Of a stretch of DNA of 64,000 nucleotides, positions 20,708-48,167 are shown one piece after another. The stretch lies in contig NBBA01000014.1 of assembly GCA_002794785.1 (NCBI GenBank), positions 62,001 to 126,000 on the forward strand. Direction: 5' to 3'. The position numbers and the translations under genes are program-made. The notes beneath the pieces are model-generated. The model searched no databases, was not told where the DNA came from, and saw nothing but the letters and a program-made list of their open reading frames with translations. This DNA is from Coniferiporia sulphurascens (lineage: Eukaryota > Basidiomycota > Agaricomycetes > Hymenochaetales > Hymenochaetaceae). Within the stretch, counting starts at the first letter, position 1; each line of letters opens with the position of its first letter.

Positions 20708-22183
20708 TGTTAGGACCAAGGGTAACCGTGGTTAGCCGATGGAACAAGTAGTTGAGATAGAGTTGAGGCATGTGATTGAGTCAAGAATAAGTTGGTAGAT
20801 GTTGGTACTTTGCTCAGGAGAAGTCTGAGAGAATTGAGAAGGTGAATTAAACTGGGGGTCTAGGCTGGTCTAGGCCCTCCTTATATACATGAAGAAGAAG
20901 CTCCGCTTGAAAGCGGATGCTCCACAAGGCTCTGCAGTTGGAGCTATGATGCCTCACAGTGTTGTCATAAGCTCCACTGACTTGGAGCTGCATACCAGTG
21001 CAAATGACCTCATTAGAGGATCATATGAGAAATAACTATCTATGATTGGCCGTTGGTGCTCCACTGAGCTCCACTGCGTGTCATGTGCTCCACTATGCTC
21101 CACTAGGCTCCACTGAGCTCATAGGGACGTCATATGGTATCATAATGACTTCACCATGACGCTTAGGCTGTGCGCATTGCCCCACTGTTCTGCACACTAC
21201 CCTGTAGTCTTATGTGCCAGTGGCTTCTTGTTGAGATGCTGCCTAACAGCTTGATGATTGGTAAGTCGTTAACTTGTCTTGTTGGCCTCCTGTACTGGTT
21301 CCTTCATGTTGTCTTGTCATATTGGACACTTCACCATTTAGAGTTTGTGGCTGGCTTCAGTAAGCGCTTCGGTTCCTGCCGAGTGTGGCTTAATCGCGTA
21401 ATGCGATATTGGCTAAAGGTCCATAGGTGGGTACCTTTCGGTTGGTGTCCTGTCGTCGATCACATTGTCCAGCGGTTTGTTAATGTGGTTTATCCTAGCA
21501 ATACGTCGCGTGTATCCTGGAGGTGGTGCCGGGGGTGATCCATTTGATAACCATAGTGTTATCATGTAAAGATTAACATTGCCGATCTGTTGATCGGCAG
21601 TTGTCGATCCCTTTGCTGATAGATTCTCGAAGAGGGTGATTACCTTTGTGCATAATCAGTGAGCATTAGCTAGGAATGTGTTATCCTGCAATGTCCTGTA
21701 CAGGAAGGATCCTGAGACCACTCGTAGGTCACATTCCTTGTCATGTATGTGCAGGTTCACTATCATCTGGACATGGACGTTGTGCAAAAACTCCTGTACA
21801 TCGAAGATGTACATTTGTATCGTGTGCATTACCCTGACCTCTGTGCCATCGCCTATAGGGTCTACAGGGTGATCTGTAGTTACCTGGCAGTTCGTGTACC
21901 CTGCCATGTAAAAGCATTTGGTTATTACCGTGTTAAATGCTTCCCATGATTGATTGTATGCAGTCCGGCATCGGTGGCAGAGTCTTGATGAGTCAAGAGT
22001 TTTTAGTGGTCGCTTGAGCATTGTGATTGGCCTGATGTTCCCAAGAAGTCCTGGTTTTCTAGTTAGTTCCGTCCCCATGTTGAATGATCGCTGGATAGTC
22101 TCCATGGGAGTCCCTTCCTGTATTGGTAGTCGCTGGTATCATTGTCTAAGCTTGTAAGCAAGCTTATTCATCAATTCCTAACA
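20708..22183 (-). mobile_element. ORF-bearing solo LTR, copy A (left inversion junction)
   Basis: A 1,476-bp LTR with ends TGTTAGGA and TCCTAACA on the plus strand and sense on the minus strand. It is almost identical, inverted, to 46692-48167. Only a few differences were seen, three of them near the 5' end of the reading frame. Its flanks do not match (CCCCC at 20703-20707, GATCA at 22184-22188), but they pair exactly with the flanks of copy B. A TATA-like TATATAAGG lies about 170 bp from its 3' end (near 20880). Repeated GTGGAGC motifs lie upstream of the TATA box. Confidence 0.8.
21656..22171 (-). pseudogene. U3-encoded protein of the ORF-bearing LTR family, copy A
   Basis: The same reading frame as 46704-47219, starting 13 bases into the LTR, but codon 11 is TGA where copy B has CAA. 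A later ATG at 22105 leaves a 149-codon open frame. It keeps the conserved block: RPITML, LCHRC (an LC-X2-C motif), W-X-AFN, and AGYTNCQVT-X-DH. No family is recognised. The nonsense change is recent, since the rest of the frame matches copy B nearly base for base. Confidence 0.55.
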
Positions 22184-23451
22184 GATCAGAGGAAAAGGGA
22201 GGAAGCACACCTGAAAGCTCCAAGAGAGCCGGGTCCGGGTCCTGGGAATGGGGTCCAAGCATATGACTCATGTATTCCCGGAGGAGGTCCAAGTCCATAT
22301 CCTCATCAGTTGGGTGGCCCTCCAGCTCCATCGCAGTGAAAGCCAAGCGGATGGTAGCAGAGGTGCAGTCAGAAAGGCAGTTCAGGTGCCTGGTCATCTT
22401 CAACCAGCGGCACAGAACCTGGAGATGGTTTTCATTGGCCCACTCAGTGTGGTGGGTTGGAAGTGGGTTGTGGGGAGGCCAGACTTTGCAGATCCAGGGT
22501 CAGAATGTGCAACACCCACCCAGTACATGGGCAGTCAACTGAGCCGGCCAGGGGGGGTGGTTGTGCCATCTGCAGTGCAAGATCAGGCCGTGCCTGTGTT
22601 GGTAGGCTGAGTCGAAGCTCAGCCAGTATCCCCTGTAGGGACTGGCATGACATAGGACCTGGGCAACTGTGGAGAGTTCATGGCAGGGGTGGTTGACCAA
22701 CTGCATTAGAAGCTTATGGGGCCGGCATGAGGGGGTGCCATTGACAGCCAGGTACTTATCAGCTGTCGAGGCAAGTGGGCAGGTGAGTGAGAGTGACCAG
22801 TGCTCCATCAGTGTGTTGATGGTGGCCTCTTTCAGTGCAGAGGTGGAGGGTGCGAGGGAGGATGGGGGTAGGTTTGTTGCAAACTTCGCCTCATGGTCTG
22901 CCCATTCATTCCTGGGGATGTCAGAGTGACCCGGGCACCATACAAAATGGATGGAAAGATCTGGGTAGGAGTCCAAAAGGGTCTGGACCCCCGCCTTCCA
23001 TTGATGGAGGAGATGAGCACCTGGTACCAGTGCCCATGTGCAGATGAGGTGGAGTGCTGTCAGCAAATCTGACAGAAAGAAAATGTCAGATGCGACAGGC
23101 AAGAGGTCCCGGAGGTGGTGTGCTGCCCAGCTCAGTGCGGAGGTGAGGGAGAAAATCTCCACGTCCATGGCTGTTGTGCAGGTGGGGGAGGCCAGCCAGT
23201 GGGACTTGAGGCGGGTAAGGCCCCTCATAGCGCAGACAGCTGATCCAGACTTAGAACCCATGTGTGAGCCATCGGTGAAAACCTGGAGGTGGGGGAGGGT
23301 GCTTAGGGAGTGTGTGGCACCCACAAATTCCTTGCAGGTGTCCTTGCTGACTGGAGTGATAGGAGTGGCAAATGAGACTTGTCCGGTCATAAATGCCAGC
23401 AGATCCATCCATGGGGGATGAGTGTATGCAGGGACTGGTTGAACCTGAGGG
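22184..23451 (-). pseudogene. LINE-A ORF2 RNase H and C-terminus, copy 6
   Basis: A 302-codon open frame (23408-22500) encodes VFTDGSHMGSKSGSAV (first RNase H Asp), the MDVEIFS Glu region, LSDLLTALH (Asp), HSDIPRNEWADHEAKFA (His and Asp), and the Cys/His tail. It ends at a TAA after GGCCTF where other copies continue, and a second frame (22403-22184) gives the last residues up to LLELSGVLPPFSSD. The four RNase H acidic positions look preserved. The frame is still broken and has no initiation context. Confidence 0.8.
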
Positions 23452-23803
23452 TGTAAGCCCAGGGCTTACTACTCCAATGCCTATGCATTGGAGACCACCG
23501 GGTCCGGACATCACCTGACATGCCGGGTTGTCAGTCACATGATGCGCCGGGCTGTCACCTGACACACCGGACTGATGGTCACATGATTGTATTTCCTCCG
23601 GACTGTACAGATCTACGCTTACATAATTCCCTCACTATTCCCATTCACTTTCTGCGCCTTTGTTGCCTCAGTCTATCTGACAGCAACAAAGGTGAGTAGT
23701 TATAGCATGGAATGTATGTAGTCTATCTGACAGCAACAAAGACACCTTTGTCCTTTCTGTCCTAGGCTGAACTTTAGTGTTGCCAACTCCTGGTTGGCTT
23801 CCA
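23452..23803. mobile_element. Small solo LTR-like insertion (LTR-D)
   Basis: A 352-bp insertion with TG...CA ends (TGTAAGCC and GGCTTCCA, imperfect inverted repeats) flanked by the 5-bp duplication GAGGG (23447-23451 and 23804-23808). A 22-base segment starting AGTCTATCTGACAGCAACAA occurs twice inside it, about 50 bp apart. It has no coding capacity. A solo LTR of another family is the simplest reading. The strand is not decided. Confidence 0.6.
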
Positions 23804-25300
23804 GAGGGACCTGGACCTGCAGAGAAGTGGAAAAGGGATGGTTAGTTACGTTTTTATAATATTGCTTTCCACCGATGGAGTGCAGGGTGTGCCAGAGACA
23901 CAGAGAGTGGAGGGTCTTAGCATATTCAAAATAATAGGAAAGGGGGGGAAGGGAACAAAGAAAATTTGTAGAAAAAGGGGAGGCACCTTTGTAGATGCCG
24001 AGAATCCATCTGCATGCCATGTTTTGCACAGCCTGCAGGCGAATTACTAGTGTTTTTTGGCATCGGCTGTGATACCACACCAGTGCACCCCATGTGAGGA
24101 TGGAGCAGACACAGGCAGTGTACAGTCGATGGAGGAGAAGGGCCGAGATTCTGTGCTCAGTGTTACCGAGAATGTGGAGGGCGGCAAGGGTGGAGAGGCC
24201 CTTGGAGCGCATGCATTTGATGTGGGCCTTGAAGGTAAGGGCGGGGTCCCACCATATTCCCAGCCAGCATAGCGGGATAAAGGGTCGGATGAGCATGGTG
24301 GGGGTGACCCAAACCCCGGTGGTAACCCAGTTGGTGTAGGCAGCTGAATGGCATCGGGGTGGGTGGAAGTGTAGGCACTCTGTTTTGGCAGCTTCAATGT
24401 TGAGACTGATGGCACTGAAGTGGGCATTGAGTTGGTGGTAGGCGTTGGACAATTGCTGGCAGTTGGATGCCATGCTGGGTCCGATGCACACTAGGAGGTG
24501 GTCGTCTATGTATGTGAGGGTGGTGGTGCCGGTTTGGTGGAATTTCTGGAGGACCACACCTGCAAATATGGTCGAAAGGATTGGAGACACCAGCGATCCT
24601 TGGGGGGTGCCGAGGTCGGGTTTGTGGGCGGTTGGGAGGGTGGTGCTGTCAAAGGCAACGGCTACCTGCCGGTCTGTCATGAAGGATAGACACCAGTCCG
24701 CCATGTCAGGCAGGCACTGGAGATCCAGCAGTTGTTGGTGGAGGAGTTGCGGGTGGACAGAGTCGAAAAAGCCCTGTATGTCGACCGCTAGGACCGAACA
24801 TACATGACCCTCAGCATGGGTGCACTCTGCAATTTGTAAGAGGTGCTGGGCGGCATCATAGACAGAGTGTCCCTGACGTCCCCCGTATTGGTTAGGTGGC
24901 AGCCAATCCCGTGTATTTGCGAGGAATTGGAGCCGGTTAGCTATTATCTTTTCAAGGAGTTTCCCTAAGGTCTCCTCAAGGGTGATGGGCCGGTAAGACT
25001 GTGGCGAGAAGGGGTCCTTCTTGTTTGGCTTCCTGAGCATTACGACTTTTGCCACCCACCAGCACTTGGGGTGGTGTCCCATGTGCAGACAGTCATTGAA
25101 AAGGGTGAGGATCTCATCGGGGTAGGCGTCTACTACCCATTTAAGGGGGCGGTAGCCGATGCCCAAGAGGGCCGGAGCTGACAAGTTGGAGGTGTTGGAC
25201 AGTGCCCCCATGAGCTCCGAGAGGAGTATGGGCAGGGCAGCTGGTTGGGGAGGAGGTGGCAGAGTGTTGGCCGCTTGTTGGGGTGGGGGGGGCATAAAGA
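23804..25300 (-). pseudogene. LINE-A ORF2 reverse transcriptase, copy 6
   Basis: A 531-codon open block with the complete RT domain: LRKPNKKDPFSPQSYRPI, QYGGRQGHSVYDAAQHLL, AVDIQGFFDSVHPQLL, LGTPQGSLVSPILSTIF and an intact TYIDDHLLVC catalytic box. This is the best-preserved RT active site in the window. The open frame ends inside LTR-D with unrelated residues. Upstream it is out of frame with the endonuclease remnant. Confidence 0.85.
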
Positions 25301-26436
25301 AAGTAGTGCGGAAGAGCTCACCTTTCTTGTCATCTGATTGGGTGAAGGTGCCATTGCGCTTCTTGAGTGAGGGAATTGGGGTAGGTCAGTTGCTGAGGCC
25401 ACACTTGGCCCAGCTCCAGATGTTGGAGGTGTCGGCTTGGTCAGCTTGATCAGTGTAGAACTGCCGCTTGGCCGCCTGTATACCACGTTTGAAGGCACAG
25501 CGGGCTGCTGATCACTGAAGGGGGGTGGTGGCCATCAAGATCACCTGGAGGAGCGACTTGCATGTCGGGGTCCACCAGGGGACCTCGGATTTTGATGGCT
25601 TGGCGAGTCGGGTGAATGGTGTGAGGGCGGCAATCATAGAGTCGACCACTGCCTGCGCTTTGATGTCAAGGGTGAGGGTGTTGTCTGCCAGGAGGTGAAA
25701 AGTGGTTTCGAGTAATGGAAAGGCGATGTCAGACCATTCTTCCCTGTCGGCCAGGAGTAACCGGCAGGTTTTTATGACTGGGGGTGGGGGCCGAAAAGGC
25801 AAGGACCAGCACAGCATGGTGTGGTCAGACAGTGGGGAGGCAGTCAATGTGCTCAAATCTATTACTGAGTCGGGGTTTATCGAGGGGGGGGTCCAAATCA
25901 TGTCAATGGGGCACTGTTGACGATTGTCAACAGGCCGTGAGTCAGAATCCGGGAGGTGAGCTGGCGCAAGGCTGTGCCCCCAGAAGAAGTTGTTGAGGGG
26001 TTGTGCCCTCAAGTCCTCCTGCCATGAGGCAAGGAGTTCGGACCACGAGTGGTGGCGATGGTTGGATCTCACCTACCACCAGTAGAGTGGAGGCTAGCGC
26101 TGGTGGGATTGTGAAAAGAAATGACTCACCAGGGTAGAGGGGGGTGGCGGTGGTGCGGTCCGGTGCATGCATGCCGTAGTAGTTGCACACATGGATCGTC
26201 AGGAGTGAGCGGATTTCGATGGTGAGGACATTGGTGCCAGAGGAGGCAGCCCCAAGGATGGACCAGGTGGTTGCGGGGATGGCACAGGATACATACGTGA
26301 TGACCCTCGGCCGAGTGGCCAGGGGGAGAACAGCTGTGTACCCTGGGAGAGATGGTACATTGAGGACCGGCATGCCGGTGGGGTCAGTGAGGGAGGGCTG
26401 GAGGCTGATTTGATACCAGGGTGGTTCCTGAATTAA
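25301..26436 (-). pseudogene. LINE-A ORF2 endonuclease remnant, copy 6
   Basis: Pieces of the endonuclease and the spacer before RT. The part at 26373-25942 begins after the first catalytic motifs. The part at 26072-25512 has CPIDMIWTPPSINPD and LSDHTMLCW, the Asp and His motifs. Frame changes fall near 26040 and 25500. The 5' truncation at 26436 lies just after the Glu motif (CAGGAACCACCCTGG). Confidence 0.75.
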
Positions 26437-26458
26437 ATGACGGTGGGTGGGGATGGGT

Positions 26459-27369
26459 TCCTCACCCCAACTGTTGGCATTTGTGCCGAAAACCAGAAAT
26501 CCGCGATGGCCCTCACTAAAGTGTCACATGAGTTTTTCGCCTCCCTCCCCACTGCAGACTGAGTCTCGGTCCTGTCCTCTGCATTTAATGTGAAGGGGAA
26601 CATCGTGACCACATTTGCGGCACGCCCATCCTCGGCTAACCCGACCACAGAGACAATCATTGATCGTCACTCCATGGCATATGCCTCCCACATGTGCACT
26701 GAGTGCATCACAGTGGGAATCACTATCCCGACTGCCTTTTCCCTAACCCCCTCCAGAGTCCGCCCCTGGTCCACCCTCCACATCTCCATGGTGCCCTGCA
26801 AGGACTTCCTGTTCAGCCAGAACAGACACACCATCACTGAGAAGGCCCTTTTGGCCAAAGTCTGGCACAACCTGGCACTCCTCAACCTCGACTTTGTAGT
26901 CGCCCCCCAGTTCACTGCCACCGAAGACCACCTGCCAACTCTTGACAGGTGCCCCATGGCCTTCTCCTTTGTCGACCCCGATGGCTCCATCCGCAAACGC
27001 CTCCTCAAGAGGCCACAAGTATGGATGTTCAGCTCTGCCCTCCAACTCTCTGTTCCACCCATTTGCCCCACCCTCACTCAATGTGAGCACTGCCAGGGCC
27101 TCTGACATGGAACCAAGGGTTTCCACACCCAACCCTACTGCGCTGACTGTGTGGGTGCTCACCTGACCCGCAATCATCGCAAATTGTGCGCCCACTGCGC
27201 CACTGACACAGTGCCCGAAGGTGACACATGTCCCCACCCCCGCCAATGCATCAACTGCAAAGGCGACCATCCCGCCACCCTGCCGATGTGCCCCAAGAAA
27301 AGGCGCTACCGCCAAATCATAGAGGCCCTCGACGCCGACCCCACTGACAAACAGATGGAGGAAGTATGA
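26459..27369 (+). pseudogene. LINE-A ORF1 C-terminal half, copy 7
   Basis: Begins at the LTPTVG-like segment. A TGA near 26562 and another near 27105 (in the first Cys knuckle, GL then stop then HGTKG) interrupt it. The later CXXC clusters (CAHCATD, CINCKGDHPATLPMC) are readable to the stop, which overlaps ORF2 as ATGA at 27366-27369. Confidence 0.75.
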
Positions 27370-29152
27370 TAGAGATGCTCTCTATCCTACAGTGGAATGC
27401 CGCCCGCTCACTCGCGGCGATACATTCCCTTATTCCAGTCCTTACTACTGATCCCTCCCCCCCACACCTAATTCTTATTCAGGAACTGCCCTGGTACCAA
27501 ATAGGGCTGCAACCCTCGCTCACCGATCCGGCCAGCACCCCGGTCTGTAATGTCCCCACCATCCCAGGATACATACCTGTTCTACCCCCCAAGGTCCGCC
27601 CCCGGGTAGTCATGTATGTATCCCGGGCCCTCCCCCCTACTTCATGGTCAATCCTCAGAGCCATGTCCCATGGCACCAATGTACTGACGGTGGAGGTCCG
27701 ATCCCAACTCACCCTCAGGTGTGCAACTACTACAGCATGCACCCCCTGGACCAAGAGAACACCTCCCCCCAGTACCCAGGTGAGTCCTTCCTATTCTCAC
27801 TCTCCTCAGAACTGGCCACCACTCTACTTGTGGTGGGCGACTTCAACCGTCACCACCACACGTGGTCCGAATTCCCTGTCCCATGACAAGATGATTTGGG
27901 GGTGCAACCCCTCAATGACTTTTTCTGTGGGCATGGCCTGATGCCTGCCCACCTTCCTGACTCTGACTCGCAGCCCAATGGCAATCATTGTCAGTGCCCC
28001 ATTGACATGATCTGGGCCCCACCCATGGTCAACCCCAACTCTATTTTAGATCCAGCTACCTCTGACCCCTCCCCGCTGTCCGACCACGCCATCCTCTGGT
28101 GGTCACTGCCATTTTGGCCCCCCCCTCCAGTCTTAAAGACCCGCCAGCTTCTCCCAGCCAACAAGGAGGAATGGACCAACATCACCTTCCCCCTCCTCAA
28201 AGCAGCCTTCCACCTCCTGGGGCTTGACACCCATGTCCTGGACATCAAAGCTAAGGTGGCATCAACTCTATGGTAGCCACCCTCCAGCCATTCACCCATC
28301 TCTCAAAACCGTCGAAAACAGAAGTCCCATGGTGGTCACCCCACTGCAAGACACTCCTAATGGCAATTTCGACGGCCACCACCCCCCTCCAGCGATCATC
28401 AGCTCGACACACCTTCAAAAGGGGTGTAAGAATGGCCAAACACCAGTTCTATGCTGACCAGGCATCAGAAGCAGATGCCCCAACATCTGGAACTGGGCCA
28501 AGTGTGGCCTCGGCAACTGACCTACTCCCATCCCCTTGCTCAGATGGCGAGATGGCTCCTTCACCCAGACAGATGACAAGAAAGGTGAGCTCTTCTGCAA
28601 AACTTACTTCATGCCCCCCCCCCACCCCATGCAGCGGCCAACACCCAGCTGCCACCACCCCACCCAGCTGCCCCACCCATACTCCTATCGGAGCTTACGG
28701 GGGCACTGTCCAACACTTCCAACTTGTCAGCTCTGGGCCTCTCGGGAATAGGGTACCGCCCCCTCAAATGGGTGGTGGAGGCCTACCCTGATGAGATTCT
28801 CTCACTTTTCAATGACTGTCTGTGCTTGGGGCACCACCCTGAGTGCTGGCAGGCGGCAAAGGTGGTGATGCTCCAGAAGCCCAACAAGAAGGACCCTTTT
28901 TTGCCACGCTCTTACCGGCCCATCACCCTTGAGGAGACCCTAGGGAAACTCCTCAAAAAGATAATAGCTAACCAGCTCCAGTTCCTCGCAAACATGCAGG
29001 ACTGGCTGCCACCAAACCAATATGGGGGGCGTCAAGGCCATTCGGTCTACGACACTGCCCAACACCTCTTACAGATTGCGGAATGCGCCCACTCGGAGGG
29101 CCTCATCTGCTCGGTCCTTGCAGTCAACATTCAGGGCTTCTTTGATTCTTTT
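27366..29152 (+). pseudogene. LINE-A ORF2 endonuclease and start of RT, copy 7
   Basis: The endonuclease motifs LQWNAA, LIQELPW, VVGDFNRHHHTW, CPIDMIW and LSDHAIL are all visible but spread over three frames. A short deletion at about 27716 and a base loss near 28260 shift the frame. RT starts at about 28600 and is open from 28724 through LQKPNKKDPFLPRSYRPI and QYGGRQGHSVYDTAQHLL to VNIQGFFDS, where it is cut. The VNIQ at motif A replaces the usual VDIQ, so a catalytic Asp is already lost. Confidence 0.8.
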
Positions 29153-36275: not shown

Positions 36276-36290
36276 TTGCCTCCCATTTAG
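36276..36290 (-). other. Polypurine tract
   Basis: On the minus strand AAATGGGAGGCAA lies directly before the TGTTACAATT of the 3' LTR. Position and purine content fit the primer for second-strand DNA synthesis. Confidence 0.55.
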
Positions 36291-36644: not shown

Positions 36645-37314
36645 TTAGTTGGACTGGTCGTCATTGTTAGACCCCATATCGATGTTGTCGATATCTATAC
36701 CTGCCGCAATGTCGTCCATATATGACCGGAGGAGAACGCGGGCCCCTAGATCGGTGAGGCGTACCATGTGTCTACCGTTTGGTTTCAGGTCATGTACTGG
36801 GTACCAGCAATGGGTTGCTTGGTGGTGGCGGCGACGGTACTCGGCATTGGTTCCGCTGCTCCTGGAGTTGGGCTGAGAGTGCAAGCTCATGGAAGAGGAT
36901 GGCCTGGTTGTGTAGGTTGGCGAGGTGAAGGAGTAGATCGACTGACGGTGGATCAGTGCGACTTAGCTGGTTTTCGAGTCCTCCGATCTCGAACTTGATT
37001 TCAGTGAGGTCCGAGGGTTGGATGAAATCTTCCGGGAAAGTTCTTTGTAATTGTTCAATTACGTCCTGGCGTGTGGGAGCAGATCTGCGGGGTTGGTATT
37101 CCTGGTGCCGGATTTCAATTGGGGGGTTTTGAATGGGGATAGTTGGAGAGAGAGGTCGGCGATTGGCGATGGTGGGGTAGCGGATGTGTGGGGTGCGATG
37201 GGTGTGGTTGTGGATGGTGGTGGTGATTGCGCAGATGAAAATGAAGAGACCAGTGGGTATGGCTACGGCGAGGTACCAGAGGTGATTGTTGTTGGTGATG
37301 TAGGCAGTGAGCAT
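36645..37314 (-). CDS. Third ORF of the chromovirus, with a membrane-like segment
   Basis: Begins with an ATG 28 bases after the pol stop. The 174-codon frame (37314-36790) starts with a short leader and a hydrophobic stretch WYLAVAIPTGLFIFICAI (about residues 12-31), then a proline- and arginine-rich region, then an acidic helical part (EFEIGGLENQLS). An overlapping frame (36890-36645) continues with HHQATHCWYPVHDLKPNG and an acidic end. A single-base shift near 36830-36890 could join the two into one protein of about 220 residues. Position between pol and the 3' LTR is where env-like or accessory ORFs sit. I do not recognise the family, and there is no fusion peptide or cysteine-rich ectodomain to support an envelope. 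Confidence 0.5.
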
Positions 37315-37342
37315 AGGATGAGATGAGGGCGGATGAAGGGTG

Positions 37343-38308: not shown

Positions 38309-38313
38309 GTCGT

Positions 38314-38873
38314 TGTTAAGCTCAATGGTTACGCAGTGATTGACGTCAGGGTTTCCTGATCGTCGGGACTGATGGTTACGGCAACGGGGCTTCCTAGATG
38401 TCATAAGTCGAAGGTGATCGTCGATGGGGCTTCCTGATTGGTGATGTGGACGTGAGGTGCTTCTTAGCAGAGTCGGGTTATGACGAAGCGACTAATGGCC
38501 AAGTGGTGCACAGTAGACTGGTGGTAGCAGATAATGGGCTTGTATGAACAAAGAGCACAAGCTTAGGGCTTGTGCTACTGAAGTTACATGCTTATATGCT
38601 ACTCTATGTGTTTGCTACTGTAGCAACTTGGTTAGGTATGTTTGCCAGACGAAGGAAGGTCATGGAAACTCAAGGAAGGCCTTGGTAATACAAGTATGGT
38701 GATCAGTAAGCAAAGCATGTCATGATGGTGCAATAAGGTGTCATCATGGCATCTTATGGCGCAAGGCGAATAAGGATGAGTAAGGTAGAGGAATGGGGGA
38801 GTTGCGCTGACTGATGATGACGAAGAGGAAGTGAGTCAGCGCAATAAAGGGAAAGTAAAGGAAAATTGTAACA
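38314..38873 (-). mobile_element. Chromovirus solo LTR nested in the integrase gene
   Basis: A 560-bp solo LTR of the same family and orientation, inserted in the integrase core between the MVVIDH segment and the SSKGIVLIPCHK segment. Flanking bases are GTCGT (38309-38313) and GTCAT (38874-38878): a 5-bp duplication with one CpG-to-CpA change. Translation across it explains the odd ends of the two flanking open frames. Confidence 0.9.
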
Positions 38874-38878
38874 GTCAT

Positions 38879-41276
38879 GATCTATGACTACCATGATGGA
38901 GTCATATCCGTTTGACATGGGTAAGTCTGTGATGAAGTCCATGGATACTGATTGAAACAGGAGCATTGAGGCATCTGCGGGTATCAGGAGCATTGGTGGC
39001 TTGGTCGGATGTGTGTTGATTTTCATCTGTTGGCACGCCGCACATCCTTTGACATAGTTCCCTACAAACACCATTAAACCGGGCCACCAATAGTGTTGTC
39101 GCACCAATTGGGATGTTTTGAATACCCCTGGGTGTCCGAATGATGGGAGATCATGGAACATTTGTAAGATTTCCCGTTTGATTTCCGCATTGTCCGGTAT
39201 ATAAACTTGTTTCTGGTATCTTAGGAGACCTGAATCAATAGTCCAGTTGTCAAGAGAGAATCGGAAAGGAGACGGAATTTTTAAATTCCGTGCATCCTGG
39301 ATCGTTTTTGCGAATGAATCGCCTTCCTGGGCGTCTCGGATGCGATTTTGGAGGTTGACATTGATTGTTCCGATAAACAAGGTTTTTGGTAACATTATAC
39401 ATTCTTCTAGTGGTTCTTCGCCATGGTCAGGGCGTCTAGATAAAGTGTCTGCCCCTGGAGTGGATTTCCCTGGGCAGTGTGTGATTATGCAATTGAATTG
39501 GGAGAGGAATAAATTCCATCATGATTGTCTTGGGGTTAAATGGCGTTCGGATCTGAAGTACGATAGGTTTTTGTGATCACACCAAATCGTGGTTGTATGG
39601 GGGTTGCTGAGAAGATAATGACACCATGCTTCGAGTCCTCGTATTATCCCTAGGAGTTCTCTGTCATAAACCTCATATCATTGTTGAGCCGGTCTGAATG
39701 TTTCTGATATGTATCTGCATGGTTGTAGATCGCCATTAGAATTTGTCTGATAGAGTATGGCTCCTGAAGCTACTTTAGATGCATCCGTCTCAAGGATAAA
39801 TGGTTTTGTGGGATCTGGTATGAGTAGGGCTGGTTTATCAAGGAAGAGCATTTTAAGCTTGGTAAATGCTTGGTCCCGTTCAGGTGTCCATTTCCATAGT
39901 TCGTTGGTGTGGGTGAGCTCGTTGAGCGGGTATACAATATCCGAAAAACTGGGAATAAAATGTCTGTAATAATTGCAGAAACCCATAAAGCTTTGGAGCT
40001 GTTTGATGGTGTGCAGGGTAGGCCAATCGGCAATTCCTGCCAGTTTGACAGGGTCCATGTGGATATTATCTGGGGTAATAATCATTCCTAAAAATTCGAC
40101 GTGTTGTACCCCAAATAGGCATTTTTCTAGTTTGCAATAAAGGTCATTGGCTGCGCAGATATCAAGAACATGGCAGGTGCGCTGGTAAAGCTCTTCCATT
40201 GAGTTGGCGAGGATAAGTACGTCATCCATGTAGATCAGGGTTCCATCTTCCAGAATTACAAAACGGAACATGTCGTCCATGAAGGCCTGGAATGTGGCGG
40301 GCGAATTGCATAGTCCGAAGAACATGACAGTTGGTTTGAAAAGTCCTCAAGGGGTTTTAAAGGCGGCTTTCCATTGATCGCCATCCTTTATCCGAATGTT
40401 ATTATATCCCGATCTAAGGTCAAGTTTCATAAAATACTTGGCTCCTTTGAGTTTGTCCATGAGATTGCTGATCAGAGGTAACGGGTATGCGTTCTTAATG
40501 ATTCCTTCATTGAGAGCTCTGTAGTCCTGACATCCTCGTAGGCTAGTGTCCTTTTTTCCCACGAAGAAGAAGGGGGATGCCATAGGTGATTTGGATGGTC
40601 GAATATAGCCTTTGCGCAAGTTTTCATCTAGGAATTCATCAAGTGCTGCCAATTCTTTAGGTGCCAGTGGGTAGACTTTACAGTTGCGTGGTATGAAATC
40701 CGGTTTGAGATCAATGGCGTGGTCGTAGGGTCTGGAGATTGGGAATCGTTCTGCCGATTTTTTGCGAAAGATGTCGAGGTACTGGTGGTATTCAGGGGGA
40801 ATTAGTTGTTCCACAGGCTTTGTTTCTTTAACCTGTTCCTGAGCGAGTGAGGTAGCAGTAGTAACTTTTGCAATAGCGAGAGTGCCTTTTTGCCAATTTA
40901 TAACCGGATTATGGTTTTTTAACCATGGTAGGCCAAGGATAACGTCTTCCTTGCCTAGAGAAGTTACAAGTAACTTTAGGGGAAGCGATTTCCCTTCGAT
41001 GCGAGCCAGTCGCCAAGTGTACTTGGTGATGGTTCCATGTTCGTTGGTGGATCTGTCCGCATTAAGAACCATAATGGGACGAGCAAGTGTTCACATTGGT
41101 ATGCGATGCTTGATGACGAATTTGGCATCAATGAACTGGCCTTCAGCGCCGGAATCAATGAGCGCGTTGGTGGGGATGGTTTGGTCATAGACAATCATAG
41201 AAATTGGAATCTTCATTGCAGGGAGTGAAGGGTCGGATTTTACAATTGGAGACATGGTAACAGGAAGACTTAACAT
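38879..41276 (-). pseudogene. pol: Chromovirus pol: protease, RT, RNase H, integrase N-terminus
   Basis: One frame interrupted by stops at about 41091, 40347, 39678 and 39541. Protease: ALIDSGAEGQFID (D-S-G). RT: YPLAPKELAALDEFL, DYRALNEGIIKNAYPLPL, MKLDLRSGYNNIRI, MFFGLCNSPATFQAF and the catalytic LIYMDDVLILA, intact. RNase H: PFILETDASKVASGAILYQ and later YEVYDRELLGI. Integrase zinc module: HDLPSFGHPG, HYWWPG and CAACQQMK (HHCC), then VSMDFITDLP with the first catalytic Asp and MVVIDH at the LTR. The ATG at 41276 is in a different frame from gag and lies 17 bases after the gag stop, so pol was made by reinitiation or by a frameshift. Confidence 0.9.
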
Positions 41277-41293
41277 CCGTCTAAGCTTCCTCT

Positions 41294-42547
41294 TTAAAAA
41301 CCCTGTTTGTCTAGGATGTCGAATATCTCATCTTTCTTCGTCTCGTCAAACTGATTGAGTAGATTGCGGATGCTCGTCGCGATGTGTTTGGGATCTTGGT
41401 TTTCCGGAACGGGTTCGGTTGCTTCGACAATTGGGAACACATTATCGATGGTATGGACTGTGCGTTGTTGGTCGGATCCCTGTTGGTACTTGGTACAATC
41501 GCAGGCGTTGTGGCCTTTCTCTCTACAGGTGAGGCATCGTCCTTTGCACATACATTTGGCTCGTTCTTCCTCGGAGAGGCGTGGTGGATGTCCGGTATTT
41601 GTGCTTTGTGTAGTGCGCTGGTTGGGTTGGTAAGGTCGGCGCTGTTGTCCATTTCTGAGATTGCGGAAACGATTCTCTTGTTTAGTAGGAGCTTGTCCTG
41701 GGCCTCGGAGGGCCTTGAGTCATTGGTAGACTGCGTCCTGTTTGGATGCCTCTCGGTACCATTCCTCAATGGTGGTGGGGGTTTTGGCACTTGCTAGAAC
41801 GCGTGCAAGGAGGCCGTGTCTGAGGCCTTTCTCGTATATGGGAATGAGGTTGTTGTCTCCTGACATGCCTGCCCGTGTTACGAGTGACTGGAAGCGACTA
41901 TTGTAATCGTCTGCAGATCCCATTTGTTGGAGTGCCATGATCTCCTGAGAGGCTTCAGCCACATCATCAGTGGTGATGAATGTGTTACAGAAGTCGCATT
42001 TGAAATCACCCCATGTGCCGTATCCGACGAGGGTAGTGAGGGTCTTGCCATTGGGGTCTTTGGTGAAGGCTGATGCGAGCGTCTCGTGGTTGATGGCCCA
42101 TTCTCCTGCAGTCCCTGTCTGCATATAGGAGAGGACAAAGTTGACTTTCAACTCACCAGTGGTGTACATGTGTCGGTTGATGTGGAGGTACGCCTCGCAG
42201 CTGGACAGAAAGCGACGAGCGTACTTGCGGTCCCCATCGAAGGTGTTGGGACAGGCAAGGTTAATCTCCTTGGGTACTGGTTGGGACATTGGAGGAGGTG
42301 GTGTCTGGGTTTTTGGGAAGATGGTTCGGTAGTTGGGGACGTTTTGTTCAAAAGTTAGATGTGCGTCTTTGGCGTCGTTAGCTTTGAACCACTGAAAGTC
42401 TCCATTGGTATTCTCTAACCACGAGTAGTAGTCGTAGTCGTTTGAGTTGGTTTGCTTTTTCTTAAAGCACTTGAGGTCATGGTCCCAGGTTCCTCCAACA
42501 AGGGGGTAGACGGGCGCTGGGATGACTAGTTTCGACAGGTTGGGCAA
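41294..42547 (-). pseudogene. gag: Chromovirus gag
   Basis: A gag polyprotein of about 417 codons in one frame, broken by TGA at 41720-41722. The capsid-like region contains NLACPNTFDGDRKYARRFLS, LSYMQTGTAGEWAINHE, WGDFKCDFCNTFITTD, LQQMGSADDYNSRFQSLVTR and GLRHGLLARVLAS, typical of Ty3 gag. The nucleocapsid knuckle is CLTCREKGHNACDC (C-X2-C-X4-H-X4-C), in which the last spacing residues are normal. An upstream ATG (about 42565) is in another frame, so the true start is unclear or has a frame change. The stop is at 41294-41296. Confidence 0.87.
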
Positions 42548-42589
42548 AGGGTTGGTGCTTGGACATTGGATACATCAGCAAAAAAATTT

Positions 42590-42606
42590 GGGAAAGCTTG
42601 TGCTAG
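42590..42606 (-). promoter_or_regulatory. Primer-binding site, probably self-priming
   Basis: The minus strand right after the 5' LTR reads CTAGCACAAGCTTTCCC. It lacks the TGG expected of a tRNA primer site. AGCACAAGCT is exactly complementary to AGCTTGTGCT inside the same LTR (42829-42838), about 30 bases downstream of the TATAAG box, where transcription should start. This is the arrangement known from Tf1, whose RNA 5' end primes its own reverse transcription. Confidence 0.65.
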
Positions 42607-43147
42607 TGTTAAGCTCAATGGTTACGCAATGATCGACATCAGGGCTGGTAGTACGGCAACAGGGCTTCCTAGATGTCATAAGTCGAAGGTGATCGGTGAT
42701 GGGGCTTCCTGATCGGCAATGTGGACGCAGTAGGCTTCTGTGGTGAATCAGGTTACGACAAAGCAACTAGTGGCACACTGGTGCACAGTAGATTGGTGGT
42801 AGCAGATAATGGGCTTGTATGAACAAAGAGCACAAGCTTAGGGCTTGTGCTACTGAAGTTACATGCTTATATGCTACTCTATGTGTTTGCTACTGTAGCA
42901 ACTTGGTTAGGTGTGTTTACCAGCCTTTGGAAGGTCATGGAAACTCAAGGAAGGCCTTGGTAATACAAGTGCGGTGATCAGTAAGCAAGGCACGTCATGA
43001 TGGTGCAGTAAGGCGTCATCATGGCGTCTTATGGTGCAAAGCGAATAAGGATGAGTAAGGTAGAGAAATGGGGGAGTTGTGCTGACTGATGATGACAAAG
43101 AGGAAGTGAGTCAGCGCAGTATGGAAAAGTAAAGGAAAATTGTAACA
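42607..43147 (-). repeat. Chromovirus 5' LTR
   Basis: 541 bp. It is like the 3' LTR but lacks about 18 bases near 42635 (a CTTCCTGATCGT segment). It has a TATAAG box (42866-42871, minus strand) and the hairpin AGCACAAGC/GCTTGTGCT at about 42829-42852, which probably spans the transcription start. Confidence 0.92.
42829..42871 (-). promoter_or_regulatory. LTR core promoter: TATA box and hairpin at predicted start
   Basis: On the minus strand TATAAGCATG is followed about 30 bases later by AGCTTGTGCT, the 3' arm of a 9-bp inverted repeat with a five-base loop. Spacing fits TATA to start site. All LTR copies in the window keep both parts. Confidence 0.6.
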
Positions 43148-43152
43148 TAAAT

Positions 43153-43454
43153 CGTCCATCGGTTCATGTGGGGGTAATTCCCACTGCGGGCTTAAGTTGA
43201 TTCCCTTAAACGAAGTGGTGCTTCACATCACCAAGCGGGTATGGGGAGGCGTGAGTCCAGGCGGCTGGGGGCAGTGGGGTAGTGCCTATGGTGCCGTGAC
43301 CCTCACACTACACCCTTGGTGTGTCAGGTAGCTCTAATCCTACCTTTAGGCCTGTGCGGCATGAAGGACAGCGGGAGGGGTCTGGTTGCCCCATATCCCG
43401 AGGAAGGTGCATGCATATGTTGAGCCCTGCAAAGGTGTTCTTAATTTTGGCCCC
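43153..43454 (+). mobile_element. X module copy 2, last third
   Basis: Continues from 35717 across the chromovirus (the sequence AGGACTAAAT is followed by CGTCCATCGG). It ends in AAAGGTGTTCTTAATTTT and is then joined to LINE RNase H sequence. There is no gene. Confidence 0.75.
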
Positions 43455-44294
43455 TGGTGCCACCTCCTTCACATCTGGAAAGCTGGTGTGGAGACCCTGC
43501 TGGACTTGTACCCCCAGCTCACTGTTCATTTCGTTTGGTGCCCTAGTCACTCAGACATCCCCGGCAATGAATGGGCTGACAGGGAAGTGAAACTGGCAAC
43601 AGAGCTCCCTCCATCCGACCTAAAGCCCTCCACTTCTGCGCTAAAAGAGGTCGCCATCTGCACCCTCATGGATAGGTGGACGCTCTCGCTTGCCCACCCC
43701 CTTGCCTCAACTGCCGACAAATACTTGGAGGTACATGGCCTCCCCTCTCGCCGACCTTGAAAGCTGCTCATGCATTCGGTCAACCACCCATGCAACGAGC
43801 TTTCTGCAGTCGCACAGGTCCTCTGCCACGCTGGTCCCTATGGGGGTTACTGGCTGAGTTTTGACTCAGCCTACCGGCACAGGCATGGCCTGATCTCGCA
43901 TTGCAGGTGGCACAACCACCCCCCATGGCCAGCGCAGTCGACCACCCACATCCTCGGTGGCTGTAGCACTTTCCACCCATGGATTAGATGCATATGGCCA
44001 CCTCAGGACCCTCTCCCAGTCCACCACTCAGAGTGGGCTGATGAAAACCGCCTCCCGGTTTTGCACTGCTGGCTTAAGCTGACAGGGCACCTAAACTGCC
44101 TTTCTGACCATGCCATGGGCGCCATCTGGCTGTCTTTTGCTGCAATGGACCTAGATGGCCACCCAACTGACAAGGATATGGACCTGGACCTCCTACAGGA
44201 CTACATGCATTGTATGCTCGGACCTCGAACCCAGGACTCAGACCAAGCCCTTTTGGAGCTATCAGGTATGCTCCCTCCCTTTCCTCTTGATTAG
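43455..44294 (+). pseudogene. LINE-A ORF2 RNase H C-terminal part and tail, chimera 2
   Basis: Encodes LHIWKAGVETLLDLYPQL, HSDIPGNEWADREVKLA and the Cys/His tail. A TGA at about 43758 follows SRRP, where other copies have CGA. It ends LLELSGMLPPFPLD at 44292-44294. It lacks the first RNase H acidic residues and all of RT. Confidence 0.8.
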
Positions 44295-44620
44295 TGCCCA
44301 TCTTTCGGATTCCTACAGATACATCTCAGCTGGCGCTCTCGCCTCCCCATTCTCACTTCTAAGCTTCTTACTTTGCCTGCCCTCACCTGCTTGGTTGGTT
44401 GGTAGCAATATGTATCCCTCCTTCTTTTTTTTGTCTTTCTTACTAAATAGGGGCTCTCCACCCTTTGGCACCCTTTGGGGAGCAGAGCCCCTGCCCAGTT
44501 TTGTGCGATGTGTGATGATGGGCGCCTCCGTTGTTATGTAGTTAGGGCCCCCCCTTTGGGGGGGCAGCTTGTGATTATGTAATACTGCAGGAATAATAAT
44601 AAATAAATAAATAAATAAGC
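43455..44620 (+). mobile_element. LINE-A part of X chimera 2; left arm of palindrome 2
   Basis: A 5'-truncated LINE-A from the RNase H domain to a (TAA/TAAA)n tail at 44590-44620. From about 43655 to the tail it is nearly identical, inverted, to 45120-46078. Before 43655 the two differ by several bases in 50. The tail should be followed by the duplication CCCCCAACCCTCAA, which is instead found at the far end of the intervening segment. Confidence 0.82.
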
Positions 44621-45119
44621 ATTGCTGGCCAATAAGGGAGGTGGGAGGGGTTGTTGAGTACGATGGAGAGCATTCTGGTAATCATTATGGTTCAACATGG
44701 GGGAGTTTTAGCTGCCCACACTAGTTGATGGTGGTGGTTACTGGTCAAGAAGGATGTGAACCCCAAGGTGTGGGGTTCATAGTTGGAGGTGCCAGGGGCT
44801 GCTCTTGGGGTGAGCGGCGACATAGCAGCAGAGGAACGCTTCCGTCCGAGGCTTGCACCTCCCACCTGTTGCGGAGGGGTATGGGGGTCGACCACCATCT
44901 CTGGGGCCATCTTGCCGAACTCGTTGGATCCATGGATCAACCCTACCAAGGAGGCCGGGGAGCCGGCTTGGGATGCATGCCTCAACTTGTTGCGTGCTTG
45001 GGCGGTAAAGTCGTAGGCCGACACCAGTTAGGAGTCGCCGATGTTGGGAGAGGGTGCCAGAACGTCTGGGGAGGAGGTCAAAGGTGGGAATCCGGTGAGG
45101 GGTTGAGGGTTGGGGGTTT
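44621..45119 (-). mobile_element. Inverted spacer of palindrome 2: two LINE-A ORF1 pieces
   Basis: On the minus strand, 45116-44758 is ORF1 from CCCCCAACCCTCAA through FPPLTSSPDVLAPSP, a TAA after GDS, LVSAYDFTAQA, VDPHTPPQQVGGASLG and EPHTLGF. It is then cut by the 5' end of another LINE-A (44757-44621), whose ORF1 starts MLNHNDYQNAL. The first piece is the missing half of LINE copy 8 (34174-34401), so this 500-bp segment has been turned round between the palindrome arms. Confidence 0.78.
45103..45116 (-). repeat. 14-bp target duplication of the X-LINE chimera, displaced right copy
   Basis: The minus strand reads CCCCCAACCCTCAA next to a LINE tail. It is identical to 34388-34401. With 44621-45119 reversed, it would directly follow the tail of chimera 2 at 44620. 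Confidence 0.8.
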
Positions 45120-46125
45120 TATTTATTTATTTATTTATTATTATTCCTGCAGTATTACATAATCACAAGCTGCCCCCCAAAGGGGGGGCCCTAACTACAT
45201 AACAACGGAGGCGCCCATCATCACACATCGCACAAAACTGGGCAGGGGCTCTGCTCCCCAAAGGGTGCCAAAGGGTGGAGAGCCCCTATTTAGTAAGAAA
45301 GACAAAAAAAAGAAGGAGGGATACATATTGCTACCAACCAACCAAGCAGGTGAGGGCAGGCAAAGTAAGAAGCTTAGAAGTGAGAATGGGGAGGCGAGAG
45401 CGCCAGCTGAGATGTATCTGTAGGAATCCGAAAGATGGGCACTAATCAAGAGGAAAGGGAGGGAGCATACCTGATAGCTCCAAAAGGGCTTGGTCTGAGT
45501 CCTGGGTTCGAGGTCCGAGCATACAATGCATGTAGTCCTGTAGGAGGTCCAGGTCCATATCCTTGTCAGTTGGGTGGCCATCTAGGTCCATTGCAGCAAA
45601 AGACAGCCAGATGGCGCCCATGGCATGGTCAGAAAGGCAGTTTAGGTGCCCTGTCAGCTTAAGCCAGCAGTGCAAAACCGGGAGGCGGTTTTCATCAGCC
45701 CACTCTGAGTGGTGGACTGGGAGAGGGTCCTGAGGTGGCCATATGCATCTAATCCATGGGTGGAAAGTGCTACAGCCACCGAGGATGTGGGTGGTCGACT
45801 GCGCTGGCCATGGGGGGTGGTTGTGCCACCTGCAATGCGAGATCAGGCCATGCCTGTGCCGGTAGGCTGAGTCAAAACTCAGCCAGTAACCCCCATAGGG
45901 ACCAGCATGGCAGAGGACCTGTGCGACTGCAGAAAGCTCGTTGCATGGGTGGTTGACCGAATGCATGAGCAGCTTTCAAGGTCGGCGAGAGGGGAGGCCA
46001 TGTACCTCCAAGTATTTGTCGGCAGTTGAGGCAAGGGGGTGGGCAAGCGAGAGCGTCCACCTATCCATGAGGGTGCAGATGGCAACTTCTTTGAGTGCAG
46101 AGGTGGAGGGCTTTAAGTCGGATGG
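45117..46125 (-). mobile_element. LINE family A, copy 5: 3' end (displaced from 20707); right arm of palindrome 2
   Basis: RNase H C-terminal part, Cys/His tail, ORF2 stop, 3' UTR, hairpin and tail on the minus strand. ORF pieces 46120-45985 and 45966-45442 carry SDLKPSTSALKEVA, a TGA after SRRP, and HSVNHPCNELSAVAQVL. The sequence joins to 20707 if LTR copy A or B and a Gypsy LTR (46126-46682) are removed and the 24.5-kb segment is reversed. Confidence 0.8.
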
Positions 46126-46682
46126 TGTTACAATTTTCCTTTACTTTCCCTTATGCGCTGACTCACTTCCTCTTTGTCATCATCAGTCAGCACAACTCCC
46201 CCATTTCTCTGCCTTACTCATCCTTACTCACCTTGCGCCATAAGACGCCATGATGACGCCTTATTGCACCATCATGACGTGCTTTGCTTACTGATACCTC
46301 AACGTGTATTACCAAGACCGTCCTTGGGTTTCCATGACCTTCCATAGCCATGTAAATTACCATACACATGACCCTACAGTAGCAAACACATAGAGTAGCA
46401 TATAAGCATGTAACTTCAGTAGCACAAGCCCTAAGCTTGTGCTCTTTGTTCATACAAGCCCATTATCTGCTACCACCAGTCTACTGTGTGCCACTTGGCC
46501 ATTATTCGCTTCATCGTAACCCGACTCGTCATAGAAGCCTACCGCGTCCACATCGCCGATCAGGAAGCCCCATCGATGATCACCCCCGACTTACGACATC
46601 TAGGAAGCCCCGTTGCCGTACCACCAGTTCCGATGATCAGGAAGCCCCGACGTCGATCACCGCGTAACCATAGAGCTTAACA
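46126..46682 (+). mobile_element. Chromovirus solo LTR in the RNase H of LINE copy 5
   Basis: 557 bp, sense on the plus strand (TGTTACAATT ... GAGCTTAACA), flanked by the perfect duplication GATGG (46121-46125 and 46683-46687). It is the only complete family LTR in plus orientation, as expected if it was turned round with the inverted segment. Confidence 0.9.
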
Positions 46683-46703
46683 GATGGGGGGTGTTAGGAA
46701 TTG

Positions 46704-47219
46704 ATGAATAAGCTTGCTTACAAGCTTAGACAACAATACCAGCGACTACCAATACAGGAAGGGACTCCCACGGAGACTATCCAGCGATCATTCAACATGG
46801 GGACGGAACTAACTAGAAAACCAGGACTTCTTGGGAACATCAGGCCAATCACAATGCTCAAGCGACCACTAAAAACTCTTGACTCATCAAGACTCTGCCA
46901 CCGATGCCGGACTGCATACAATCAATCATGGGAAGCATTTAACACGGTAATAACCAAATGCTTTTACATGGCAGGGTACACGAACTGCCAGGTAACTACA
47001 GATCACCCTGTAGACCCTATAGGCGATGGCACAGAGGTCAGGGTAATGCACACGATACAAATGTACATCTTCGATGTACAGGAGTTTTTGCACAACGTCC
47101 ATGTCCAGATGATAGTGAACCTGCACATACATGACAAGGAATGTGACCTACGAGTGGTCTCAGGATCCTTCCTGTACAGGACATTGCAGGATAACACATT
47201 CCTAGCTAATGCTCACTGA
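46704..47219 (+). CDS. U3-encoded protein of the ORF-bearing LTR family, copy B (intact)
   Basis: An intact frame of 171 residues starting 13 bases from the LTR 5' end. The N-terminus is basic (MNKLAYKLRQQYQRLPIQ). The central block RPITMLKRP, LCHRC, W-X-AFN, AGYTNCQVT-X-DH is shared with the protein in LTR copy C despite great overall divergence. The C-terminal half is hydrophobic-alternating (MYIFDVQEFLHNVHVQMIVN). There is no signal peptide or membrane segment. LC-X2-C with the later NC could bind a metal. In a complete element this frame would be the last one, inside the 3' LTR, a position used by accessory proteins of some retroviruses. I do not recognise the family and infer no function. 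Confidence 0.6.
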   Translation: MNKLAYKLRQQYQRLPIQEGTPTETIQRSFNMGTELTRKPGLLGNIRPITMLKRPLKTLDSSRLCHRCRTAYNQSWEAFNTVITKCFYMAGYTNCQVTTDHPVDPIGDGTEVRVMHTIQMYIFDVQEFLHNVHVQMIVNLHIHDKECDLRVVSGSFLYRTLQDNTFLANAH

Positions 47220-47754
47220 TTATGCACAAAGGTAATCACCCTCTTCGAGAATCTATCAGCAAAGGGATCGACAACTGCCGATCAACAGATCGGCAATGTT
47301 AATCTTTACATGATAACACTATGGTTATCAAATGGATCACCCCCGGCACCACCTCCAGGATACACGCGACGTATTGCTAGGATAAACCACATTAACAAAC
47401 CGCTGGACAATGTGATCGACGACAGGACACCAACCGAAAGGTACCCACCTATGGACCTTTAGCCAATATCGCATTACGCGATTAAGCCACACTCGGCAGG
47501 AACCGAAGCGCTTACTGAAGCCAGCCACAAACTCTAAATGGTGAAGTGTCCAATATGACAAGACAACATGAAGGAACCAGTACAGGAGGCCAACAAGACA
47601 AGTTAACGACTTACCAATCATCAAGCTGTTAGGCAGCATCTCAACAAGAAGCCACTGGCACATAAGACTACAGGGTAGTGTGCAGAACAGTGGGGCAATG
47701 CGCACAGCCTAAGCGTCATGGTGAAGTCATTATGATACCATATGACGTCCCTAT

Positions 47755-47955
47755 GAGCTCAGTGGAGCCTAGTGGAGCATAGTGGAGCACATGACACGCA
47801 GTGGAGCTCAGTGGAGCACCAACGGCCAATCATAGATAGTTATTTCTCATATGATCCTCTAATGAGGTCATTTGCACTGGTATGCAGCTCCAAGTCAGTG
47901 GAGCTTATGACAACACTGTGAGGCATCATAGCTCCAACTGCAGAGCCTTGTGGAG
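47755..47955 (+). promoter_or_regulatory. Cluster of GTGGAGC motifs in U3 of LTR copy B
   Basis: GTGGAGC followed by any base occurs five times within about 70 bp (47760-47820) and twice more before 47955, all upstream of the TATA box at about 47994. Regular repeats in U3 often bind transcription factors. Here that is inference. Confidence 0.45.
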
Positions 47956-47993
47956 CATCCGCTTTCAAGCGGAGCTTCTTCTTCATGTATATA

Positions 47994-48002
47994 AGGAGGG
48001 CC
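47994..48002 (+). promoter_or_regulatory. TATA box of LTR copy B
   Basis: GTATATAAGGAGG about 170 bp before the LTR 3' end, at the same relative position as in copies A and C. Confidence 0.55.
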
Positions 48003-48167
48003 TAGACCAGCCTAGACCCCCAGTTTAATTCACCTTCTCAATTCTCTCAGACTTCTCCTGAGCAAAGTACCAACATCTACCAACTTATTCTTGACTCAAT
48101 CACATGCCTCAACTCTATCTCAACTACTTGTTCCATCGGCTAACCACGGTTACCCTTGGTCCTAACA

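What the first reader, a model, noticed from the sequence alone, without database searches (positions are those of the whole stretch)
20708..48167. A 24.5-kb inversion between two inverted solo LTRs, proved by swapped target duplications
LTR A has flanks CCCCC and GATCA. LTR B, read in the same orientation, has GATCA and CCCCC. Turning round the segment between them gives two solo LTRs with perfect 5-bp duplications (CCCCC/CCCCC and TGATC/TGATC). It also rejoins two split LINEs: RNase H of copy 5 (20707 to 46691) and the ORF2 end with 3' UTR of copy 6 (22184 to 48168). The one complete family solo LTR in the opposite direction (46126-46682) also lies inside. This is ectopic recombination between inverted LTRs.
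Basis: partly seen in the sequence, partly recalled or inferred. Interest (0 to 1): 0.88.

Follow-up and report, generated by a model that had tools for sequence, protein, structure and literature searches.

The report
Inverted LTRs that flipped 24.5 kilobases
Two copies of an old transposon end, lying in opposite directions, recombined with each other and turned round the 24.5 kb of probably fungal DNA between them, and several other close inverted pairs of the same repeat in this genome show the same exchange.

Summary
Confirmed. LTRs A (20708-22183, +) and B (46692-48167, -) are 99.80% identical and carry exchanged 5-bp duplications (CCCCC/GATCA, GATCA/CCCCC). Intact LINE copies span 3 of 4 re-inverted junctions (C14 and C26) and 0 of 4 present ones; the fourth holds a nested LTR. 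Inversion by recombination between inverted LTRs is well supported, but it is not isolated. Of 47 full-length copies read, 28 have perfect duplications and 10 form five inverted pairs with exchanged ones: this locus, its counterpart on contig C26, and three more. Of 8 inverted pairs within 25 kb, 7 are 99.3-100% identical; all 1,073 other pairs are below 96.3%. C26 is collinear with the window at about 96.5%, in the same exchanged state. At 62 variable LTR sites the partners agree within a contig at 54, show the allelic pattern at 0, and 8 are other. So the LTRs were homogenised after C14 and C26 diverged. A nested inverted LINE pair has its 0.5-kb spacer in opposite orientations on C14 and C26. 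The mechanism is known (yeast flip/flop region, Drosophila Galileo). My searches found no earlier multi-locus solo-LTR case in a fungus.

The parts
20708..22183 (+). Solo LTR A, 1476 bp, TGTTAGGA...TCCTAACA
46692..48167 (-). Solo LTR B, 99.80% identical to A, opposite orientation
22184..46691 (.). Inverted segment, 24,508 bp
   Evidence: Exchanged duplications at both ends and LINE continuity on re-inversion
20703..20707 (+). CCCCC, half of the duplication whose partner lies at 46687-46691
46687..46691 (+). GGGGG (CCCCC on the other strand), partner of 20703-20707
22184..22188 (+). GATCA, half of the duplication whose partner lies at 48168-48172
48168..48172 (+). TGATC (GATCA on the other strand), partner of 22184-22188
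18628..20707 (+). Front part of LINE copy 5, cut by LTR A
   Evidence: aligns to 10673-12753
45119..46125 (-). LINE 3' part at the place of copy 5's continuation; now 99.2% identical to 43611-44618 (converted)
43611..44618 (+). Other arm of the nested inverted LINE pair
44619..45118 (.). Spacer of the nested LINE pair; 44625-45118 lies inverted relative to C26:127570-127077 (97.4%)
22184..23451 (-). LINE copy 6 part, separated by the inversion from its 3' end at 48168-48495
48168..48495 (+). 3' end of LINE copy 6
46126..46682 (-). Nested 557-bp solo LTR of another family with GATGG duplication (46121-46125, 46683-46687); the site is empty on C26
29152..32757 (.). LINE palindrome, 99.7% arm identity; counterpart on C26 at 117633-122655

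Best explanation
Two solo LTRs of one family inserted independently, in opposite orientation, into two LINE copies about 24.5 kb apart on one chromosome (their 5-bp duplications differ). The chromosome folds back, the LTRs pair, and a break in one is repaired from the other (inferred). Repairs without crossover copy sequence and keep the two LTRs almost identical (conversion shown by site patterns). A repair with crossover turns round the segment between them and exchanges the flanking duplications (inversion shown; crossover inferred). Because homogenised arms can keep recombining, the segment may flip repeatedly. What is seen is an odd number of flips, in a state shared by C14 and C26. The same process acts on other inverted LTR pairs within about 25 kb and on some inverted LINE pairs.
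For: Exchanged duplications. Re-inverted junctions spanned by intact LINEs in 3 of 4 cases, present ones in 0 of 4. Five exchanged inverted pairs (four loci, C14 and C26 being one) among 47 full-length copies. 7 of 8 inverted pairs within 25 kb at least 99% identical, against 0 of 1,073 other pairs. Pair C1:1028748/1040065 is 99.66% identical with each copy's own duplication intact: conversion without net inversion. C26 is collinear and in the same state. Four-copy patterns, within-contig: allelic: LTR 54:0 (8 other), palindrome 71:0, C26/C28 LINE arms over 1.2 kb 62:0. Differences within a pair cluster at one end, as partial conversion tracts would leave them: P 0.004-0.008 for C14, 0.0003-0.001 for C26, 0.005-0.013 for C7:750140/752330.
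Against: The A/B segment has the same orientation on C14 and C26, so no flip of this segment is seen as a polymorphism. CCCCC is a low-complexity duplication. The inverted C27 pair, 22 kb apart, is not homogenised (95.6%). Clustering is weak for C1 (P 0.02-0.06) and C23 (0.08-0.11). Only one direct LTR pair lies within 25 kb, so orientation dependence is thinly tested. The nested LINE arms are not homogenised on C26: in that four-copy set 49 of 52 variable sites were singleton/other and 3 within-contig. Most inverted repeat pairs in the window are not homogenised either (32 of 35 of at least 500 bp), among them inverted 557-bp LTRs at 87.7-89.9%.
Confidence: 0.91

Rival explanations
1. One-step replicative or aberrant transposition: an element at one site attacks a second site on the same chromosome, leaving two identical inverted copies with exchanged duplications and an inverted segment.
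For: It gives the same duplication pattern and, at time zero, identical copies. The five exchanged pairs are reciprocal best matches. The Galileo paper discusses such a rival (PMC2775673, passages).
Against: Pair C1:1028748/1040065 is as homogenised, yet both copies keep their own duplications. C14 and C26 share the exchanged state, but partners are 99.7-99.8% alike within a contig and 95.2-95.5% between, so later conversion is needed anyway. A solo LTR has no known cut-and-join ends (recalled).
Confidence: 0.04
2. Assembly error: the assembler flipped the segment between two near-identical 1.5-kb repeats.
For: The repeats are 99.8% identical, and no reads were available to me.
Against: Contig C26, about 3.5% diverged and with different transposon insertions, has the same order across both LTRs. 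Four other pairs, on C26, C23 and C7 (two), show the same exchange, one with a single mismatch.
Confidence: 0.03
3. A and B are recent insertions of one source copy, so their identity needs no conversion, and the flank exchange came from a single later crossover.
For: Simple; identity alone would allow it.
Against: C14 and C26 share both insertions, yet between-contig differences (57 and 59 substitutions) far exceed within-contig ones (3 and 5). Allelic-pattern sites number 0.
Confidence: 0.02

Closest known systems
Saccharomyces chromosome XIV 24-kb flip/flop region (PMC9731477; abstract, IR section and Discussion read)
   Same: A segment of about 24 kb between inverted repeats that are homogenised within strains and species; inversion attributed there to gene conversion with occasional crossover.
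   Different: There the repeats are 4-kb gene pairs at one locus and both orientations are seen. Here they are solo LTRs at several loci, the 5-bp duplications record the parity of flips, and both contigs share one orientation of A/B.
Drosophila buzzatii inversion 2z3 made by Galileo copies (PMC2775673; passages)
   Same: Copies in opposite orientation with exchanged target duplications at the breakpoints.
   Different: Galileo is a DNA transposon with 7-bp duplications, its breakpoint copies are chimeric, and single target copies were seen in uninverted chromosomes. Here the copies are homogenised, so chimerism cannot be read.
Human polymorphic inversions between inverted repeats (PMC3961182; passages)
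   Same: Recurrent inversion between highly similar inverted repeats.
   Different: Shown there by genotyping many people and some apes; here inferred from one genome.

Membership tests
Inversion by ectopic recombination between inverted transposon copies (Galileo-type criteria) | Two copies in opposite orientation at the two breakpoints | tested here: met
Inversion by ectopic recombination between inverted transposon copies (Galileo-type criteria) | Target duplications exchanged between the two copies | tested here: met
Inversion by ectopic recombination between inverted transposon copies (Galileo-type criteria) | Re-inverted order restores continuous pre-insertion sites | tested here: met
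   3 of 4 re-inverted junctions (C14 and C26) spanned by paralogous intact LINEs, the fourth holding a nested LTR; present junctions 0 of 4. No uninverted chromosome was available.
Inversion by ectopic recombination between inverted transposon copies (Galileo-type criteria) | Both copies chimeric | tested here: inconclusive
   Only 3 differences remain between A and B
Flip/flop region with homogenised inverted repeats | Repeats more alike within a haplotype than between | tested here: met
   54 within-contig to 0 allelic sites, 8 other; that C26 is a haplotype is inference
Flip/flop region with homogenised inverted repeats | Both orientations exist | tested here: inconclusive
   A/B segment in one orientation on both contigs; the nested spacer 44625-45118 is in opposite orientations
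Solo LTR of an LTR retrotransposon | TG...CA ends and 5-bp target duplication | tested here: met
   28 of 47 full-length copies have perfect duplications; so do 4 copies split by insertions
Solo LTR of an LTR retrotransposon | Full-length relatives with an internal coding region | tested here: inconclusive
   No internal region shared by the flanks of the copies read; no direct full-length pair closer than 17 kb. Each genome search scored only 40 of 90-98 candidates, so absence is not proved.
Replicative or aberrant transposition product | Near-identity of partners arises together with exchanged flanks | tested here: not met
   C1 pair 99.66% identical with unexchanged duplications

The most novel reading that the evidence does not exclude
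In this fungus nearly any two solo LTRs of the family that lie inverted within about 25 kb become a flip-flop switch: conversion keeps them identical and their interval turns over often enough that its orientation is near random. Exchanged duplications record flip parity (5 exchanged, 1 native and 1 inverted duplication among 7 homogenised pairs, C14 and C26 counted apart), and flips may segregate between the two nuclei of the dikaryon. Direct pairs are lost by deletion, leaving an excess of inverted ones (8 to 1 within 25 kb, P 0.04, or 7 to 1, P 0.07, with C14 and C26 counted once).
Probability: 0.4. Interest if true: 0.75.

Novelty: new variant of a known kind. Interest (0 to 1): 0.6.

Why it matters
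Solo LTRs carry a built-in record: their duplications show, without an outgroup, whether the flanked interval has flipped an odd number of times. With several loci in one genome, one could measure how often conversion between inverted repeats ends in a crossover, how that falls with distance, and whether close inverted repeats survive because direct ones delete. It also warns that LTR identity cannot be used to date such copies.

Tried and rejected
Replicative transposition was taken seriously, because it gives the same exchanged duplications; it was set aside on the C1 pair and the C14/C26 comparison. I first thought the C14 and C26 LTRs might have been converted in opposite directions from two different insertions. 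Classifying differences showed that a 10-bp insertion is private to the C26 pair among the 47 copies and that most differences are CpG transitions, so I dropped it. An orientation difference between C26 and C28 at the LINE arms looked possible from distances; the outer flank showed that C28 is simply reverse-complemented there. C18:245572/253126 looked like an exchanged pair but is an inverted duplication with at least 773 bp of shared outer flank at 99.87%. The re-inversion test for C7:1568590/1571625, C1 and C18 had no spanning copy for either order among the sequences held. C2:524996 and its inverted, truncated neighbour 526681 (209 bp apart) do not show an exchange at the end that could be read. 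Paper searches for an earlier multi-locus fungal LTR case found none; the library lacks most subscription journals. Passages of PMC2773423 and PMC12510652 were looked at and gave nothing closer; the papers listed were seen as listings only.
Full report
SETTING. The window is G000:C14:62001-126000 of a 39.3-Mb, 31-contig genome. The LINE protein at 10644-13433 has its best named match, by E-value, in Coniferiporia weirii (65% identity over 89% of the query), so the host is probably a hymenochaetoid basidiomycete; that is inference. Three RNA polymerase second-subunit loci suggest a mainly haploid assembly.

OBSERVATION. LTR A is 20708-22183 (+) and LTR B 46692-48167 (-). Each is 1,476 bp, with 3 differences between them. 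A has CCCCC / GATCA, and B read in the same sense has GATCA / CCCCC. Re-inverting 22184-46691 gives CCCCC/CCCCC and TGATC/TGATC. With 200-base flanks joined and one duplication kept, none of the 4 present junctions on C14 and C26 is spanned by a LINE copy in the window. Of the 4 re-inverted junctions 3 are, by 10 alignments each (not all independent: some copies are themselves palindromic). The fourth, the left one on C14, contains the nested 557-bp LTR 46126-46682.

GENOME-WIDE COPIES. Searches with the LTR, its two ends and a divergent copy score only the best 40 of 90-98 candidates, so counts are lower bounds. One full-length-size hit (C12:662262-663738) was not fetched. From 55 stretches fetched, 47 full-length copies were read; 20 partial pieces were left out of the pair counts, and the flanks of 17 of these 20 were read later. 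28 of 47 have perfect 5-bp duplications. Of the 19 without, 10 form five inverted pairs with exchanged flanks: C14 A/B; C26:109187/129152; C23:385730/395004; C7:1568590/1571625; and C7:750140/752330 (one mismatch). Two are an inverted duplication on C18; 7 are unexplained or carry near-matching flanks. C14 and C26 are the same locus, so there are four different exchanged loci. Among the sequences held, re-inverted but not present junctions were also spanned for C7:750140/752330 (7 and 1 alignments; at least one lies in the locus's own stretch) and on one of two sides for C23 (1 alignment). C7:1568590/1571625, C1 and C18 gave no spanning copy in either order.

HOMOGENISATION. Mean identity over all pairs is 94.3%. 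Inverted pairs within 25 kb: 7 of 8 are at least 99% identical, the exception being C27 at 95.6%. All other pairs: 0 of 1,073, maximum 96.25% (Fisher P about 2e-17, pairs not independent). Those 1,073 include the single direct pair within 25 kb (95.5%) and, at 25-100 kb, 4 inverted and 3 direct pairs. The C1 pair (9.8 kb apart) is 99.66% identical with both duplications intact, so conversion occurs without net inversion; an even number of flips would look the same. Residual differences cluster at one end in C14, C26 and C7:750140/752330, more weakly in C1 and C23; the C7:1568590 and C18 pairs have none.

CONTIG C26. C26:100-140 kb is collinear with window 11.8-57.5 kb at about 96.5% (95.3-97.9% by block), with different transposon insertions and the same exchanged state. 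C26's left part matches C28 in reverse at 93-95% and its right end matches C14:189-192 kb at 97-99%. It therefore seems to bridge C28 and C14 and is most likely the other haplotype; a paralogous copy is not excluded. In 9 blocks outside the LTRs, C14 and C26 differ at 25.4% of CpG positions and 1.1% of others over 25,605 aligned bases. At four-copy variable sites, within-contig agreement: allelic pattern is 54:0 for the LTRs (8 other), 71:0 for the palindrome 29152-32757 and 62:0 for 1.2 kb of the C26/C28 LINE arms. The fourth set, part of the nested LINE arms, gave 3:0 with 49 singleton/other, because those arms are not homogenised on C26. The first three sets evolve in concert within each contig. 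Identity between A and B therefore says nothing about the age of the inversion, and the crossover cannot be placed.

A SECOND INVERSION. The inverted LINE arms 43611-44618 and 45119-46125 are 99.2% identical on C14. Their C26 counterparts are 86-90% alike, and the spacer 44625-45118 lies the other way round on C26 (97.4%). On C14 the right arm appears to have been overwritten from the left up to the nested LTR, and the spacer differs in orientation; which orientation is older is unknown.

LIMITS OF GENERALITY. Among repeat pairs of 500 bp or more within 25 kb, at least 99% identity is found in 3 of 35 inverted and 0 of 42 direct pairs in the window, and in 2 of 23 and 0 of 19 on C26 (these overlap by homology). 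Most inverted pairs are therefore not homogenised; three quarters of them lie below 88% identity, so high starting identity may be needed (inference). Inverted 557-bp LTRs, 87.7-89.9% alike, are not homogenised. Inverted LINE pairs on C28 (99.83%) and C3 (100%) were fetched because their scores matched, so they are not a sample; the C26 pair (99.67%) came up by chance from a contig-end query.

MECHANISM. Shown: exchanged duplications, LINE continuity on re-inversion, concerted evolution within contigs, homogenisation with unexchanged duplications at C1. Inferred: fold-back pairing in cis, crossover as the inversion step, recurrence. Replicative or aberrant transposition would give the same duplications but not the C1 pair, and cannot by itself give the C14/C26 pattern.

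COMPARISON. Exchanged duplications as evidence of ectopic recombination are established for Galileo in Drosophila (PMC2775673, passages). A 24-kb flip/flop with homogenised inverted repeats is established in Saccharomyces (PMC9731477, abstract and two sections). Recurrence of inverted-repeat inversions is reported in humans (PMC3961182, passages). Hughes and Coffin 2001 on HERV rearrangements was seen only as a line in the reference list of PMC3625200. My searches found no earlier report of several exchanged solo-LTR pairs in one fungal genome.

Noticed in passing
29152-32757: LINE palindrome with 99.7% arm identity and almost no spacer; on C26 the arms are longer (2,465 bp, 95-bp spacer, 99.6%), and arms agree within contigs at 71 of 71 variable sites.
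   Followed up: partly
43611-46125: Nested inverted LINE arms whose spacer is inverted relative to C26, with one arm apparently overwritten on C14.
   Followed up: yes
whole window; G000 contigs such as C3, C4, C7, C11, C17: Hits of three LINE queries (capped lists) fall on many contigs into one block (for example C7 1061-1331 kb, C3 2105-2287 kb, C17 746-940 kb; C12 and C23 are broader), unlike the dispersed element. These may be centromeres; the window is rich in the same LINEs.
   Followed up: partly
14195-57557 against C26:101808-140000: C14 and C26 differ at 25.4% of CpG positions and 1.1% of others, a strong CpG transition bias that could reflect methylation or a RIP-like process.
   Followed up: partly
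35718-43148: Ty3-type element with gag, integrase and chromodomain matches and LTR ends 97.8% identical over 507 bp, absent from C26.
   Followed up: partly
G000:C18:245572-254609 (L047, L048): Identical inverted LTRs with at least 773 bp of shared outer flank at 99.87% around a 6-kb centre: an inverted duplication rather than an exchanged pair.
   Followed up: partly
G000, 1476-bp LTR family: Only solo copies or pieces were seen; no full-length element was found among the copies fetched (searches capped).
   Followed up: partly
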